The notes beneath the pieces are model-generated. The model saw only the letters and a program-made list of their open reading frames with translations, made no database searches and was not told where the DNA came from. 64,000 bases of DNA from Arthrobacter russicus (GTDB lineage Bacteria; Actinomycetota; Actinomycetes; Actinomycetales; Micrococcaceae). Position numbers and translations under genes: made by a program. Shown here one piece after another: positions 1,875 to 55,953 of this stretch (the stretch's first letter is position 1; each line of letters opens with the position of its first letter). The DNA is taken from the NCBI RefSeq assembly GCF_031454135.1, contig NZ_JAVDQF010000001.1:3534001-3598000 (forward strand), read 5' to 3'.

Positions 1875-1935
1875 GCGGGGGCGAGAATTCGCGGCTCGGT
1901 CCCACCGAGTCTGCCCGCTGAGTGGGCCACAACCA

Positions 1936-1973
1936 TTTTGTCCCACTCGAAATACCGACCCGGTGGGACAAAA
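1936..1973. repeat. 11-bp inverted repeat, 16-nt spacer
   Basis: The arms TTTTGTCCCAC (1936-1946) and GTGGGACAAAA (1963-1973) are perfect inverted copies, and pairing resumes after short mismatches further out. It lies 61 nt after the MinD-like stop codon, ahead of the strong terminator at 2025. It could be a first termination/processing hairpin or a protein-binding site. Confidence 0.5.
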
Positions 1974-2020
1974 CCGTTGGGACACATCCAGTGCGCCAGC
2001 CAGGCGCATCTAACCGCTCG

Positions 2021-7453: not shown

Positions 7454-8857
7454 GTGCAAGATCAGACGAATTCACCCTTCATGACCATCGACGACTCTGC
7501 TGTCCGGCTTGGCCAAGCCGGTGCCGCGAACTACCCGGGCCTGGATGCCTGGCGCTCGCTGCCGATTTCCCAGCAGCCGACGTGGCAGGACGAAGCGGTT
7601 TATCAGTCGTCGATCAAAGAACTTTCCTCGCTGCCCCCGTTGGTTTTTGCCGGTGAAGTGGACATCTTGCGGGACCGACTCGCAGCTGCTGCCCAAGGCA
7701 AGGCGTTCCTGTTGCAGGGCGGCGATTGCGCAGAGACCTTCGACGGTGCCACCGCGGACAAGATCAGTGCCCGGGTCAAGACGATCCTGCAGATGGCGGT
7801 AGTGCTGACCTACGGCGCTTCGCTTCCGGTGATCAAGATGGGCCGGATGGCCGGCCAGTTCGCCAAACCGCGTTCGTCCAACGATGAGACCCGGGACGGG
7901 CTCACCCTGCCCGCCTACCGCGGCGATATGGTCAACGGCTACGAGTTCACTCCGGAGTCGCGCGGCCACGATGCGCAACGCTTGGTGCGGGCCTACCACA
8001 CCTCGGCGTCGACCCTGAACTTGATCCGGGCGTTCACCCAGGGCGGGTTCGCCGACCTGCGGTTGGTGCACCACTGGAACAAGGGGTTCACGCAGAACCC
8101 GGCGCATGCCCGCTACGAATCGTTGGCCGGGGAGATCGACCGGGCGATCCGGTTCATGGAAGCCTGCGGTTCGGACTTCGAGGCGCTCAAGCGCACCGAG
8201 TTCTTCGCCAGCCACGAGGCGTTGCTGCTCGACTACGAGCGGGCGCTGACCCGGATCGACTCGCGGACCGGAACTCCGTACGCCACCAGCGGGCACTTCC
8301 TCTGGATCGGCGAGCGGACCCGGCAATTGGATGCCGCCCACGTTGACTTCCTCTCCCGGGTGCGCAATCCGATCGGCGTCAAGCTCGGCCCGAACACGTC
8401 CGGCGACGACGCGCTGCGGCTGATCGACAAGTTGGACCCGAACCGGGAACCCGGCCGGATCACGTTCATCACCCGGATGGGCGCGAACAACATCCGGGAG
8501 AAGCTGCCCGCGTTGGTGCAGAAGGTCACCGATTCCGGAGCCCAGGTGCTCTGGGTTACCGACCCGATGCACGGTAATACCGTGACCTCGCCGAATGGCT
8601 ACAAGACGCGGAATTTCGACGACGTGATGGACGAAGTGCGTGGCTTCTTCGAAGTGCACCAGGCGTTGGGGACGTTCCCCGGAGGCTTGCACGTGGAGAT
8701 GACCGGCGACGATGTGGCCGAGTGCTTGGGCGGTGCTGATCCGATCGACCAGGAGGCGTTCCTGACCCGTTACGAGTCGGTTTGCGATCCGCGCCTGAAC
8801 CACATGCAGTCGCTCGAGATGGCGTTCCTGGTTTCCGGAGCTCTCTCCAAACGCTGA
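7454..8857 (+). CDS. aroG: 3-deoxy-7-phosphoheptulonate synthase, class II
   Basis: This enzyme joins phosphoenolpyruvate and erythrose-4-phosphate in the first step of the shikimate pathway. Class II (plant-like) signatures are clear: LLQGGDCAETF, KMGRMAGQFAKPRS, the GHFLWIGERTRQLDAAHVDF block and GVKLGPNTSGDD. The length of 467 fits the family, related to mycobacterial AroG. The start is GTG without a ribosome-binding site but with a -10 element 6 nt away. The kinase PknL gene lies nearby, as in mycobacteria, though here separated by a lower-GC gene flanked by hairpins. Confidence 0.95.
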   Translation: MQDQTNSPFMTIDDSAVRLGQAGAANYPGLDAWRSLPISQQPTWQDEAVYQSSIKELSSLPPLVFAGEVDILRDRLAAAAQGKAFLLQGGDCAETFDGATADKISARVKTILQMAVVLTYGASLPVIKMGRMAGQFAKPRSSNDETRDGLTLPAYRGDMVNGYEFTPESRGHDAQRLVRAYHTSASTLNLIRAFTQGGFADLRLVHHWNKGFTQNPAHARYESLAGEIDRAIRFMEACGSDFEALKRTEFFASHEALLLDYERALTRIDSRTGTPYATSGHFLWIGERTRQLDAAHVDFLSRVRNPIGVKLGPNTSGDDALRLIDKLDPNREPGRITFITRMGANNIREKLPALVQKVTDSGAQVLWVTDPMHGNTVTSPNGYKTRNFDDVMDEVRGFFEVHQALGTFPGGLHVEMTGDDVAECLGGADPIDQEAFLTRYESVCDPRLNHMQSLEMAFLVSGALSKR

Positions 8858-8866
8858 TTAACCCCC

Positions 8867-8943
8867 GTTTTAGATAGTCGTCTGCTTTTTGGTTAGCCGT
8901 TTGCGCGTCAACCGGCTAACCAAAAAGCAGACGACTATCTGAA
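8867..8943. repeat. Palindromic repeat copy 1 (28-bp perfect stem, 13-nt loop)
   Basis: Arms 8872-8899 and 8913-8940 are perfect inverted copies around the loop TTTGCGCGTCAAC. The element starts 10 nt after the aroG stop. A homologous copy of the same length lies at 9950-10026, so the gene between them is bracketed. The loop bases TTTGCGCGTCAA and the ends (AGATAG/CTATCTGAA) are shared. It may act as a terminator, but the stem is unusually long and no T-tract follows. Confidence 0.85.
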
Positions 8944-9003
8944 GTTATACACAGATCTGGGCCGGGTCTTCCACTGCGCTTAGCGGAGCCCAATAGTGAT
9001 GAC

Positions 9004-9942
9004 ATGGCAGAGTCAATCCGCGACCAGATCCGTACTCCGGCAGAAGACCCACTGGATTCGAAGCTTTCACGGGATCTCCTCCGGCAGTTCCGTTCCGGAA
9101 CTCTGGTGCGCTTGCGGCGGGCCAGCTACATCGCGCAGAGTACCTGGCTGTCGATGGATGAGATCCCGCGACATCTTGCCCGAATGCACGCGATCGATGC
9201 GGCTGCCAATAGCCGACCGGTATTCGCCGCGGAATCGGCGGCCTTATTGTGGGGGCTGCCGGTGCAGTCCATCCCGGAGCGGGTACAGATCAATGTGCCG
9301 CCAGGCAGCGGCCAGCGCAGTCGTGGTCCCGCGGTTCGACGGCAGTTCCCACAGCTAGACGACGGCGAGTGGTTCGTAGACGGACTGAAGGTGACTTCGG
9401 CGGTGCAGACCGCCGTCGAACTTGCCCTGCGTCAGCGCTACGCCTGGTCAATCGCATCGCTGGACAATTATTTGCATGGTCCGACCTCGAGCGCTGCGTG
9501 GAAGCCTTCGGCGCAGGGGCTTCGCGAAGCGGCGTGCCGCCTGCCGAGCCGGGCAAAGACCCGACGGGTTTTGGCGCTCACGGAGTTGGCCGATGCCGGC
9601 TCCATGTCAGTTGGCGAATCGATCAGCCGAGCGAATATGCATTTGGCCGGTTTGCCGAAGCCAACGCTCCAAGCCTGCTTCCATGACGACGACGGATTGA
9701 TCGGCTATACGGATTTTTGCTGGCGGGAATTCGGCGTTGTCGGCGAATTCGACGGAAAGGTGAAATACCGGAAGCCGGAGTACCTGCAGGGGAGGGATCC
9801 GGCGGAAGTGGTCATCGAGGAGAAAATAAGGGAAGACCGACTCCGTGCGCTAGGGCTGAAAGTTGTCCGCTGGACCTGGGCAACGGCCAATTCGCCGAAT
9901 CAGTTGCGGAGCAGGCTCGTGGCTGCGGGGCTTCCTCGCTAA
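9004..9942 (+). CDS. Winged-helix/DUF559 protein, AbiEi-like N-terminus and Vsr-type nuclease fold
   Basis: The C-terminal 100 residues match the DUF559 family of restriction-endonuclease-like (Vsr/PD-(D/E)XK-related) domains: GYTDFCWREFGVVGEFDGKVKY, then EEKIREDRLRALGLKVVRWTW. The first 60 residues (LLRQFRSGTLVRLRRASYIA) resemble the winged helix of AbiEi-type antitoxins. Such fusions are widespread in actinobacteria and mostly uncharacterised; nuclease activity has to be inferred. Local GC content is lower than that of neighbours (about 55% over 9701-9780). No toxin partner is adjacent, so a type IV toxin-antitoxin role is unproven. AATAGT ends 6 nt before the ATG, a possible leaderless start. 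Confidence 0.75.
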   Translation: MAESIRDQIRTPAEDPLDSKLSRDLLRQFRSGTLVRLRRASYIAQSTWLSMDEIPRHLARMHAIDAAANSRPVFAAESAALLWGLPVQSIPERVQINVPPGSGQRSRGPAVRRQFPQLDDGEWFVDGLKVTSAVQTAVELALRQRYAWSIASLDNYLHGPTSSAAWKPSAQGLREAACRLPSRAKTRRVLALTELADAGSMSVGESISRANMHLAGLPKPTLQACFHDDDGLIGYTDFCWREFGVVGEFDGKVKYRKPEYLQGRDPAEVVIEEKIREDRLRALGLKVVRWTWATANSPNQLRSRLVAAGLPR

Positions 9943-9949
9943 ACCCGCT

Positions 9950-10026
9950 GTTTCAGATAGCCAGTTGCCTTTTAGTTTCCGATTTGCGCGTCAAGAGGCT
10001 ATCGGAAAGGCAGGAGGCTATCTGAA
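9950..10026. repeat. Palindromic repeat copy 2 (imperfect)
   Basis: It aligns without gaps to the element at 8867-8943. The outer stem 9950-9962 pairs with 10016-10028, then TGCCTTT with AAAGGCA further in, and a CCGAT/ATCGG inner part. The left arm holds a 6-nt bulge. The loop region TTTGCGCGTCAA is identical to copy 1. It begins 7 nt after the DUF559 gene stop and ends 6 nt before the PknL stop on the other strand. Confidence 0.8.
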
Positions 10027-10033
10027 ACGGGGA

Positions 10034-12163
10034 TCAGACCACGGTGAGGTTGATGACCGTGCCCTCGGGGACCGAAGTGTTGACCGGATCCTGGGCCCGT
10101 ACCGTGCCGAAGAACCCGCCCAGGACCTCAGTGATCTTGTAGGGCAGGTCGAGCTTCTTCAACTCGTCGATCGCCTGCTGCACCTGTTTGCCCACGAAGC
10201 TCGGCACGGTGACCATTTTCGGACCCTTGGAAATCACCAGGGTCACCTGGCCACCCTTGGTCAACGTGCCGCTCGCCGGAGTCTGCGAAACTACCGCGCC
10301 GGCCGGGACTTTCGCGTCATTGACCTGCTCCGGAGCCACCGCCGGCACCAAGCCGGCATCGGTGATGGCCTTGACCGCGGCGTCCTGGGTCTGCCCGACG
10401 ACGACGGGCACCGGAATCGGTTGCGGACCTTGGGACACGACGAGATTGATCTGGGTTGCGGCTCGTTTCTGGGTTTCGGGTGCCGGGTCCTGGCTCAGCA
10501 CCTGCCCCGCTGGCGCCTGCTCATCGTATTTCTGCGTCACCGTGCCCAGCGCCAGATGATTGGCGTTGAGCGCGGTTTTGGCGGCGTCCAAGGTGCCGCC
10601 GACCATGGCCGGCACCGGATAGAGCGTGGGTCCCTGGGAAACCAGCAAAACCACCGACAGGAACTTGCGCTGCTGGGTCTGCGCCGGCGGTTGGCTGCTG
10701 ACCACGTTGCCTTGGGCGATGAGCTCGTCATTCACGTTCTGCGTGGTCGAGGCGAAACCCAGGCTGCTCAATTCGGCTTGCGCCTGCGAGACGGTCTTGT
10801 CTTTGAGGTCGGGGACCGTGGCCAGGGCACCGGGCCCCATGCCGAAGAACCAGCCCGCAGTGGCCCCGAGCAGGGCCAACAGCAAAATCAGCACCAACCA
10901 GATCAGGCCCTTGCGCCGGGTGTTCCCCTTGCGCAGCGTGGCCACCGGGGTGGCGGCGTTGCGAGCCGCATCGCGGGCCGCGAGCTTGTCCGCCTTCTTC
11001 TTCGCGGAGCGTGCCGCCCGGGGCGCGATCCGGGGCGCCTCCCCAGTGTCCACGGTCAGCGGGGGAGTCCGTTCCAGCATCGCGGTCGGCTGCACCTGCC
11101 GGTCGAACACCTCGGTGTACTGCCCCGCGGCGTCGTTGCGGTCGGCGACCAGTTCCGTCGGCCGCGACTGCGGGTCCAGAGCTTCGGTCAGATCGGTCGG
11201 GTCCACCGGTCGGGCCGAAGCCACCGGCCGGGTCAGCGCCGACGTCGGCGGGAAGGCCGGTGGGGCGGGCAGGCCTCGGCGGGTACCGGGGCCGAAGTCG
11301 AGTTGGGCATCACTGAGCGAGGTCCGGATGTGCCGGATTTCACCCAACAGCGCGCTCGCGTCGTGCGGCCGGCCTTCGGGATCGGATTCGGTGCACCAAC
11401 GCACCAACTCGTCGAGGTCCGGAGCCAGGCCCGGCCGGACGCTGGACGGCGCCGGCACGGCGGAGTTCACGTGCTGGTAGGCAACCTGGATGGGCACCTC
11501 GCCGCGGAAAGGCTGTTCGCCGGTGAGCAGTTCGAAGAGCATGATTCCGACGGCGTAGATGTCGCTGCGCGTGTCTGAAGGCTTGCCCATCACCAGCTCG
11601 GGCGAAAGATAGGCCACGGTACCGATCAGAGTGCCGGTGCTGGTCGAAGTGGTGACCGCGCGGGCCAGGCCGAAATCCGCTACCTTGATCCGGCCGTCGT
11701 CGGCGATCAGGACATTTTCCGGTTTGATGTCGCGGTGCACCAGGCCGGCGCGGTGCGCCGCGGCCAACCCGTCCACGACCGCGTCGAGGTAGGCCAAGGC
11801 CAACCGCGGAGTCAGCGCGCCCTGGTCGTTGAGCACATCGCGGAGGGTGTGCCCGGGCACGTACTCCATGACCAGGTAGGCGAGCTGCGCGCCGTCGCGC
11901 AGCTCTTCGCCCTGATCCAGGACCCCGACGACGTGCGGGTGGGAGAGCCTGGCTGCGGCTTTGGCTTCGGTGCCCAGCCGGTCCAGGAAAGAGTCGTCCA
12001 TGCTCAGATGCGGGTGCAGCACTTTGAGCGCCACTTCGCGGTCCAGGCGCAAGTCAGTGGCAAGGTACACGGTGGCCATGCCACCGCGCGCTACCTTGCT
12101 CAGCACCTGGTACCGCTGGTCTACCAGTGAGCCCACCAACGGTTCTTGAACCTTATCCTGCAC
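10034..12163 (-). CDS. pknL: Serine/threonine protein kinase with four PASTA repeats, PknL type
   Basis: The N-terminal kinase domain has the glycine loop VARGGMATV (residues 25-33), catalytic Lys47 (VALK), HRD with Asp145, and DFG at 163-165. A basic juxtamembrane stretch precedes one transmembrane helix (LVLILLLALLGATAGWFF), after which four extracellular PASTA repeats, which bind peptidoglycan fragments in related kinases, run to the end. Next to aroG and a Rv2175c homologue this is the PknL position in mycobacteria; Mycobacterium tuberculosis PknL itself lacks PASTA repeats. The GTG start sits 6 nt from a -10 element, so the mRNA is probably leaderless. Confidence 0.9.
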   Translation of the reverse strand: MQDKVQEPLVGSLVDQRYQVLSKVARGGMATVYLATDLRLDREVALKVLHPHLSMDDSFLDRLGTEAKAAARLSHPHVVGVLDQGEELRDGAQLAYLVMEYVPGHTLRDVLNDQGALTPRLALAYLDAVVDGLAAAHRAGLVHRDIKPENVLIADDGRIKVADFGLARAVTTSTSTGTLIGTVAYLSPELVMGKPSDTRSDIYAVGIMLFELLTGEQPFRGEVPIQVAYQHVNSAVPAPSSVRPGLAPDLDELVRWCTESDPEGRPHDASALLGEIRHIRTSLSDAQLDFGPGTRRGLPAPPAFPPTSALTRPVASARPVDPTDLTEALDPQSRPTELVADRNDAAGQYTEVFDRQVQPTAMLERTPPLTVDTGEAPRIAPRAARSAKKKADKLAARDAARNAATPVATLRKGNTRRKGLIWLVLILLLALLGATAGWFFGMGPGALATVPDLKDKTVSQAQAELSSLGFASTTQNVNDELIAQGNVVSSQPPAQTQQRKFLSVVLLVSQGPTLYPVPAMVGGTLDAAKTALNANHLALGTVTQKYDEQAPAGQVLSQDPAPETQKRAATQINLVVSQGPQPIPVPVVVGQTQDAAVKAITDAGLVPAVAPEQVNDAKVPAGAVVSQTPASGTLTKGGQVTLVISKGPKMVTVPSFVGKQVQQAIDELKKLDLPYKITEVLGGFFGTVRAQDPVNTSVPEGTVINLTVV

Positions 12164-55866: not shown

Positions 55867-55927
55867 CACTTGGGCGCAGTTCAGCAGGGTTCGCAATGCT
55901 CAGACCCTGCTGAACTGCGCCCAAGTG
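55867..55927. repeat. 24-bp perfect-stem hairpin, 13-nt loop, between convergent genes
   Basis: Arms 55867-55890 and 55904-55927 are perfect inverted copies around TCGCAATGCTCAG. It lies between the anchored protein gene and panB, which converge. The stem is unrelated in sequence to the 8867/9950 pair, but the form (long stem, 13-nt loop) is the same. It probably acts as bidirectional terminator. Confidence 0.85.
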
Positions 55928-55953
55928 CCGAAACGGGCTAGCGGGTTCTTGGC

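What the first reader, a model, noticed from the sequence alone, without database searches (positions are those of the whole stretch)
8867..10028. A gene bracketed by two homologous 77-nt palindromic repeats
The element at 8867-8943 (28-bp perfect stem) and that at 9950-10026 align end to end without a gap and share the loop TTTGCGCGTCAA and the tips AGATAG/CTATCTGAA. They are in the same orientation and enclose exactly one lower-GC gene with its own possible leaderless promoter. The perfect stem of copy 1, against a diverged copy 2 with the same loop, suggests that the arms co-evolve or that copies move. This could be a MITE-like or REP-like cassette carrying a nuclease-like gene, or a genus-specific terminator family. 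A nuclease-like protein next to hairpins recalls REP-associated transposases, so the protein might act on the hairpins.
Basis: partly seen in the sequence, partly recalled or inferred. Interest (0 to 1): 0.72.

Follow-up and report, generated by a model that had tools for sequence, protein, structure and literature searches.

The report
Nuclease genes with private hairpin repeats
A little-noticed family of actinobacterial genes for a DNA-cutting-type protein often sits between two copies of a long DNA hairpin, each gene with its own hairpin sequence that can also be scattered around the chromosome, which looks like an unrecognised kind of hairpin-based genetic element.

Summary
The two 79-nt hairpins belong to a dispersed family (29 model matches in this Renibacterium genome, 29 and 40 in two relatives). 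Each element has four GATAGC-type boxes, two per arm 19 bp apart, and strongly compensated arms. In tandem contexts G-T mismatches do not exceed A-C ones, so pairing looks DNA-level rather than RNA-level. The enclosed gene (AbiEi-like N-terminus, Vsr-type nuclease C-terminus) belongs to an actinobacteria-wide family whose members are often bracketed by hairpins: both sides in 11 of 26 further homologs and 15 of 29 in an independent phylum-wide set, against 0 of 122 control genes. In 29 of 29 loci with both hairpins the two are each other's best match, so each gene has a private dialect. At one locus of one species, hairpin, gene and hairpin were replaced by another dialect between 96-99% identical flanks. 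Y1/RAYT transposases, integrons and simple terminators do not explain this. Best reading: a REPtron-like pair of hairpin-specific nuclease and cognate hairpin, spreading or exchanging by break-induced copying. The association is well supported; binding, cutting and mobility are inferred, and some homologs and some hairpin families lack a visible partner.

The parts
8867..8945 (+). Upstream cognate hairpin (copy 1), 79 nt, four GATAGC-type boxes (8873, 8892 and their inverted partners), 5-nt apical loop
9004..9942 (+). Gene of 312 aa: AbiEi-like N-terminal half, Vsr/MTES_1575-type nuclease C-terminal half
   Evidence: weak model matches for this member itself
9950..10028 (+). Downstream cognate hairpin (copy 2), 79 nt, starts 7 nt after the stop codon and ends 5 nt before the stop of the convergent pknL
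7454..8857 (+). aroG-type gene, left flank, conserved next to the cassette in G113, G002 and G004
10034..12163 (-). pknL-type kinase gene, right flank, convergent, conserved next to the cassette in G113, G002 and G004

Best explanation
Gene and hairpins form one cognate unit. The more variable N-terminal (AbiEi-like) half of the protein recognises boxes of its own hairpin, two per arm 19 bp apart. The Vsr-type nuclease domain nicks or cuts the hairpin when it is extruded or single-stranded. Repair of the break copies hairpin sequence, or the whole hairpin-gene-hairpin cassette, from another copy. This would keep the hairpins of one genome in one dialect, seed lone hairpins, and let cassettes replace one another at fixed places. 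Shown here: the gene-hairpin association, the private matched dialect of each bracketed gene, dispersal of several dialects, DNA-level arm compensation, conserved nuclease-type residues, one within-species cassette replacement. Inferred: binding, cutting, copying by repair. I hold the association itself at about 0.95; the number below is for the mechanism.
For: Bracketing on both sides: 14 of 30 homolog loci (11 of 26 without the discovery locus) and 15 of 29 in an independent set, controls 0 of 122; hairpins near the gene 44 in 29 kb against 4 in the other 82 kb. Own partner hairpin is the best match in 29 of 29 loci, 0.64 against 0.13. Direct repeat at 19 bp. Lone hairpins of gene-bracketing dialects elsewhere. 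Within-species replacement of a cassette with its dialect. Non-syntenic bracketed homolog in G115. D237 28/28, E248, D250, K254 27/28. No G-U excess. Hairpin replaced, inverted or arm-swapped between two genomes of one species at 4 of 27 matched sites, and two homology breakpoints at hairpin edges.
Against: No binding, cutting or movement was observed. Sites are stationary over species, and no clean empty site with target duplication was found. Within the species, 52 of 57 changed stem pairs changed on one side only, so no sign of joint arm correction at that time scale. The N-terminal half is the less conserved one also among locus-A alleles that share GATAGC boxes (46-50% against 68-75%), so dialect is not proven to follow it. 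Some homologs have no hairpins: 3 of 30, 4 of 29, the Nakamurella, Propionibacteriaceae and Gordonia loci, two Tsukamurella loci. GATAGC elements of G005, G255 and G389 have no cognate gene among the homologs seen there. Protein-hairpin similarity correlates only weakly overall (0.16). Foldseek matches to Vsr are not significant.
Confidence: 0.55

Rival explanations
1. Host-serving DNA system: the protein is a domesticated hairpin/cruciform binder or processor and the hairpins are fixed chromosomal sites (organisation, replication or recombination control), without mobility.
For: Orthologous positions kept between species: 14 G000-G002 site pairs (13 distinct G002 sites), 6 G000-G004, 8 G002-G004 with both flanking genes matched; strong arm compensation; preference for convergent gene ends.
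Against: Different dialects in one genome, each with its own gene; family patchy, 128 of 396 genomes; cassette replacement within a species; some copies look broken.
Confidence: 0.22
2. Autoregulated conflict gene: the AbiEi-like half binds the bracketing hairpins as operators of its own gene; lone hairpins are relics of lost cassettes.
For: AbiEi_4 matches in 8 of 28 homologs; upstream hairpin often 50-300 bp before the start; broken copies exist.
Against: Lone GATAGC hairpins lie mostly at gene ends, 9 of 112 in divergent gaps; 29-40 relics per genome without gene remnants is a lot; no AbiEii partner at the locus.
Confidence: 0.15
3. Lineage-specific transcription terminators or 3'-end RNA hairpins that happen to flank the gene.
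For: 58 tandem and 42 convergent of 112 sites, median 31.5 nt after the stop in tandem cases; in 70 of 74 gene ends with room for it no strict canonical terminator lies before the element.
Against: GT 148 against AC 137 mismatches in transcript orientation, p 0.55 (no positive control was run); 5 of 142 ends with a T-run after the element; no fixed orientation to transcription; two sites have an ordinary-looking terminator before the element by eye; does not explain private dialects around one gene family.
Confidence: 0.06
4. A known mobile system: REP/RAYT, a MITE of a known transposon, or an integron cassette with attC-like sites.
For: Dispersed palindromes; a gene between two palindromes.
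Against: Y1_Tnp found in 2 of 39 genomes, among the hairpin-bearing ones searched only in G002; no transposase or integrase between the hairpins; sites are dispersed, not arrays; boxes are direct within an arm, unlike attC core boxes as I recall them.
Confidence: 0.02

Closest known systems
REPtron: RAYT (Y1 tyrosine transposase) flanked by REP palindromes (PMC3733652, passages read)
   Same: One gene flanked by copies of a palindrome that is also dispersed as lone copies; several types per genome; intergenic.
   Different: Enzyme is AbiEi-like plus Vsr-type nuclease, not Y1/HUH; elements are 57-85 nt with two direct boxes per arm rather than short GTAG-tagged hairpins; dialect differs from allele to allele at one locus; not found together with Y1 here.
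MTES_1575 / Vsr-type restriction-like nuclease domain (PF18741; PMC3710099, passages read)
   Same: C-terminal domain of 4 of 28 homologs matches; Vsr endonuclease is Foldseek rank 1 and 2, not significant.
   Different: In the passages read the domain is described in large multidomain conflict proteins; here it is fused to an AbiEi-like half and bracketed by hairpins.
AbiE type IV toxin-antitoxin, AbiEi antitoxin
   Same: N-terminal half matches AbiEi models weakly; one named homolog is annotated as AbiEi-family.
   Different: Solitary gene without an AbiEii-type partner at this locus, and a nuclease domain attached.
Homing endonuclease genes with a Vsr-like catalytic domain (I-Bth0305I)
   Same: Appears at Foldseek rank 12, E 1.9; possible homing logic.
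   Different: Gene is framed by palindromes, not inside an intron or intein; similarity not significant.

Membership tests
REPtron / RAYT | gene encodes a Y1 (IS200/IS605-type) transposase | tested here: not met
   Window protein has AbiEi-type, no Y1 match; Y1_Tnp not found in G000
REPtron / RAYT | gene flanked by copies of a dispersed palindrome | tested here: met
REPtron / RAYT | palindromes tagged by GTAG (or CGTC) at one end | tested here: not met
   consensus GTTTCAGATAGCC...; boxes on both arms; tag definition
Vsr/MTES_1575 nuclease | profile match | tested here: inconclusive
   4 of 28 homologs at E <= 0.01, not the window member
Vsr/MTES_1575 nuclease | conserved acidic/Lys residues of a PD-(D/E)XK-type core | tested here: met
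   D237 28/28, E248, D250, K254 27/28; catalytic role inferred
AbiE toxin-antitoxin | AbiEii-type toxin gene in operon | tested here: not met
   single gene between aroG and convergent pknL
Integron gene cassette | attC sites in arrays next to an IntI integrase | tested here: inconclusive
   sites dispersed over the genome; no integrase in the interval; IntI was not searched genome-wide
Intrinsic terminator | GC-rich RNA hairpin followed by a U-run | tested here: not met
   5 of 142 ends with a T-run; GT 148 vs AC 137
Known RNA family | Rfam match at gathering score | tested here: not met
   only two sub-threshold miRNA-precursor hits
Homing endonuclease gene | cuts alleles lacking the element, which is then copied in | not testable with these tools
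   allele replacement seen, no cutting assay

The most novel reading that the evidence does not exclude
A previously undescribed, actinobacteria-wide class of genetic element: a Vsr-type nuclease fused to a fast-evolving AbiEi-like recognition half, each gene framed by its own private long-hairpin dialect that can also seed the genome, with cassettes of different dialect exchanging as alleles at fixed loci.
Probability: 0.8. Interest if true: 0.9.

Novelty: categorically new. Interest (0 to 1): 0.86.

Why it matters
Genes of this kind are annotated as 'hypothetical protein' or 'AbiEi family antitoxin domain-containing protein' in the named records I saw and were found in 128 of 396 sampled genomes of the phylum, a lower bound. 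If each is a hairpin-specific nuclease with its own sites, this is an independent counterpart of REP/RAYT built on an unrelated enzyme. It would supply many natural protein-hairpin pairs for learning how recognition switches, would account for families of long intergenic palindromes in actinobacteria, and offers a testable case of cassette exchange and concerted evolution at fixed loci.

Tried and rejected
Rejected or weakened: (1) movement of this very cassette: aroG-hairpin-gene-hairpin-pknL is conserved in G113, G002 and G004. (2) Y1/RAYT. (3) RNA hairpin or terminator as the main selected feature; no positive control for the G-U test was run, so its power is unproven. (4) Lack of locus memory as proof of gene conversion: orthologous elements are 0.60 identical against 0.58 for non-orthologous (G000-G002), but 4-fold sites are saturated (0.41-0.50), so it is not decisive. 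(5) Plasmid or phage cargo: 4 plasmid records, 0 phage records; the single-protein scan of viral contigs found no relative. (6) PDB relative by sequence: none. Led nowhere: the G113 counterpart of G000 1421137 was not in L216/L217; L188 turned out not to be a G113-only site; L182/L213 differ without a clean empty site; the AlphaFold N-terminal half is unusable.

Limits: the whole-genome model searches scored 150 first-look candidates per genome out of 265-546 and one search scored at most 5 per genome, so counts are lower bounds. Two of the 29 G000 matches (370090, 1421137) are weak, and 1421137 is on inspection a hairpin of the GATGCATC dialect. Lengths are those of the model's alignment. Gene calls come from a home-made codon-usage finder, which missed the window gene; I added that gene by hand. 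Dialect assignments of lone hairpins were made by eye. Literature: ten searches of an open-access library listed no paper that visibly describes this; three papers were read in passages, the rest seen as listings.

Full report
THE OBSERVATION. The two palindromes are real. Each is 79 nt (8867-8945, 9950-10028); they align without gaps and share TTTGCGCGTCAA. Both fold far better than shuffles as single-stranded DNA (z -15 and -7). One 312-aa gene lies between them, between an aroG-type gene and a convergent pknL-type kinase gene (gene names by similarity and recall). The window lies in a single-contig genome (G000). The closest record carrying the gene is a Renibacterium MAG, RGIG571 (98% protein identity); G113, listed as same species, has a contig of the same length (796,075).

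A DISPERSED, FIXED-LENGTH FAMILY. A covariance model from 6 copies found 27 sites in G000. A second model from 32 copies found 29 in G000, 29 in G002 and 4 in G005, 40 in G004 and 11 in G009, which is of another genus; G001 and G003 of the same genus have none. Two of the G000 matches are weak, and one of them (1421137) proved to be another dialect. Of 112 sites placed in fetched loci, G000 has 29 of 29 at 79 nt, G002 29 of 29 at 80 nt, G004 39 of 40 at 80 nt and G009 8 of 10 at 74 nt, by the model's alignment. Each element has two GATAGC-type boxes per arm, 19 bp apart. On 32 aligned copies 28 of 37 pairs show changes on both sides; the covariation score is 0.382 against 0.179 +/- 0.011 shuffled and at most 0.134 slid. 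A pure architecture pattern (box, 13 nt, box, 2-30 nt, inverted box, 13 nt, inverted box) hit 3 of 396 genomes of the order: G000 3 times, G389 of another family 15 times, G488 once; the reversed control was 0 in the genomes listed.

NOT SIMPLE TERMINATORS. Sites prefer gene ends: 58 tandem, 42 convergent, 9 divergent, 2 inside a predicted gene, 1 undefined, against 265 tandem, 47 convergent and 113 divergent gaps without a site. In the 58 tandem cases, oriented by transcription, GT mismatches (148) do not exceed AC mismatches (137; p 0.55), whereas RNA pairing would favour GT (no positive control). Of 142 gene ends reading into an element, 5 have a T-run after it; of 74 ends with room, 4 have a strict canonical terminator before the element. 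A terminator side-role is therefore not excluded.

STATIONARY YET CHANGEABLE. 14 G000-G002 site pairs (13 distinct G002 sites), 6 G000-G004 and 8 G002-G004 have both flanking genes matched, yet length and box surroundings are species-specific. Synonymous sites are saturated, so this fits co-evolution with a changing binding protein as well as gene conversion. Between G000 and G113, 27 of 29 sites were matched; 23 differ by 0-5 bases. One element reads as inverted in its centre, one has swapped arms, and two are replaced by different hairpins. Of 57 changed stem pairs, 52 changed on one side only, so at this time scale the arms do not visibly correct each other. Of three sites that differ in presence and could be inspected, two have a homology breakpoint within about 10 bp of a hairpin edge (L184/L212, L055/L215) and one (L182/L213) is not clean; none shows a clean empty site.

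THE GENE GOES WITH HAIRPINS. Homologs occur in 15 of 16 genomes searched, up to five matches each; 30 loci were returned. Palindrome detection without a sequence model found hairpins on both sides of 14 of these 30, on one side of 13 and on neither side of 3. Of 122 control genes from the window and seven regions fetched by position, 0 had both and 18 had one. Without the four alleles of the discovery locus it is 11 of 26 (Fisher 6e-10). As an independent test, 396 genomes of the phylum were searched with the profile: 128 have a match. Of the 29 returned loci outside G000, 15 have hairpins on both sides, 10 on one and 4 on none; hairpins within 500 bp of the gene number 44 in 29 kb, elsewhere in the same loci 4 in 82 kb. 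In G115 the bracketed homolog is at a different chromosomal place, next to neither aroG nor pknL. A named case: Collinsella aerofaciens WP_148332043.1 has several hairpins on both sides, and the motif recurs about 6 kb away. Misses: the Nakamurella, Propionibacteriaceae MAG and Gordonia loci and two Tsukamurella loci show none. GATAGC elements in G005, G255 and G389 have no cognate gene among the homologs seen there.

PRIVATE DIALECTS. In 29 of 29 loci with both hairpins (14 and 15 from the two sets) the two are each other's best match: mean similarity 0.64 within a locus, 0.13 between loci. The direct repeat within an arm is 19 bp apart in the first set (best or tied best in 31 cases, every other distance at most 4) and modal but weaker in the second (13 of 44). 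Lone hairpins of other gene-bracketing dialects occur elsewhere in the DNA held, by eye: GATGCATC, GACGCC and GATATTGG types. Protein and hairpin similarity correlate weakly overall (0.16; 1 of 2000 permutations as high); the 11 protein pairs with score ratio above 0.5 have mean hairpin similarity 0.29, the other bins 0.14-0.16.

ALLELE REPLACEMENT. At one locus G000 (L235) and G113 (L245), same species, share flanks of 99.0% (1262 nt) and 96.0% (1393 nt) identity. The interior differs: another dialect on both sides (the right-hand hairpin of L245 is below the detection threshold and was read from the alignment), N-terminal protein half 40% and C-terminal part 70% identical. On the left the flank identity ends 15 nt before the hairpin; on the right it resumes inside the hairpin. 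Loci with homologous flanks and yet other dialects are present in G001 (L226), G002 (L246) and G004 (L237). A caution: the N-terminal half is also the less conserved one among locus-A alleles that share GATAGC boxes (46-50% against 68-75%), so the link between that half and the dialect is an inference.

THE PROTEIN. AbiEi_4 matches 8 of 28 homologs, the MTES_1575 restriction-like nuclease 4 of 28 and AbiEi_1 2 of 28; the window protein itself only reaches weak AbiEi matches. MTES_1575 is described as a Vsr-family fold (PMC3710099, passages). D237 is conserved in 28 of 28, E248, D250 and K254 in 27 of 28. The AlphaFold model from 3 sequences is poor (mean pLDDT 43) and better only over residues 204-312; Foldseek's first two matches are Vsr endonuclease, not significant.

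MECHANISM AND NOVELTY. I commit to a hairpin-specific nuclease with its own hairpins, spreading and exchanging by break-induced copying, as most likely (0.55); the association itself I hold at about 0.95. Rivals are a domesticated DNA-maintenance system and an autoregulated conflict gene with relic hairpins. By layout the nearest known thing is the REPtron (PMC3733652, passages). By enzyme, hairpin architecture and private, replaceable dialects it is a different system, hence 'categorically new'; a reader who classifies by layout alone would say 'new variant of a known kind'. Ten literature searches in an open-access library listed no paper that visibly describes it.

Noticed in passing
G000 C1:564863, 1300530, 1962841, 2490533; G004 C2:21447, 849666, 852548, 945431, 1473559: Another dispersed hairpin dialect (CGAGTG...AGATCTGCA type, 57-69 nt) in two Renibacterium genomes; its cognate gene was not identified.
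   Followed up: no
window 55867-55928: A 61-nt palindrome (CACTTGGGCGCAG...) that resembles one in G002 at C1:910485, by eye possibly a further dialect.
   Followed up: no
window 1912-1997: Another long imperfect palindrome (score 16) of no assigned dialect.
   Followed up: no
G389 (loci L202, L205, L207, L209, L210): 15 exact matches to the GATAGC four-box architecture in a genome of another family, while the two homologous genes found there carry other dialects.
   Followed up: partly
G000 C1:1061793 and 2284664 against G113 (L179, L171): Palindrome centre inverted in one case and arms swapped in the other between two genomes of one species.
   Followed up: partly
G000 C1:1959609-1960152 (L066): Two nearly identical hairpins (97%) on either side of a HIT-type gene, looking like a local duplication.
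   Followed up: no
L219 (G113), L223 (G115): Cassette genes that look broken: altered reading near the C-terminus in the G113 MAG (could be an assembly error) and an internal TAG in G115.
   Followed up: no
L141 (G004), L105 (G005), L050 (G000): Hairpins stay at the ends of two conserved genes while the genes between differ between species.
   Followed up: partly
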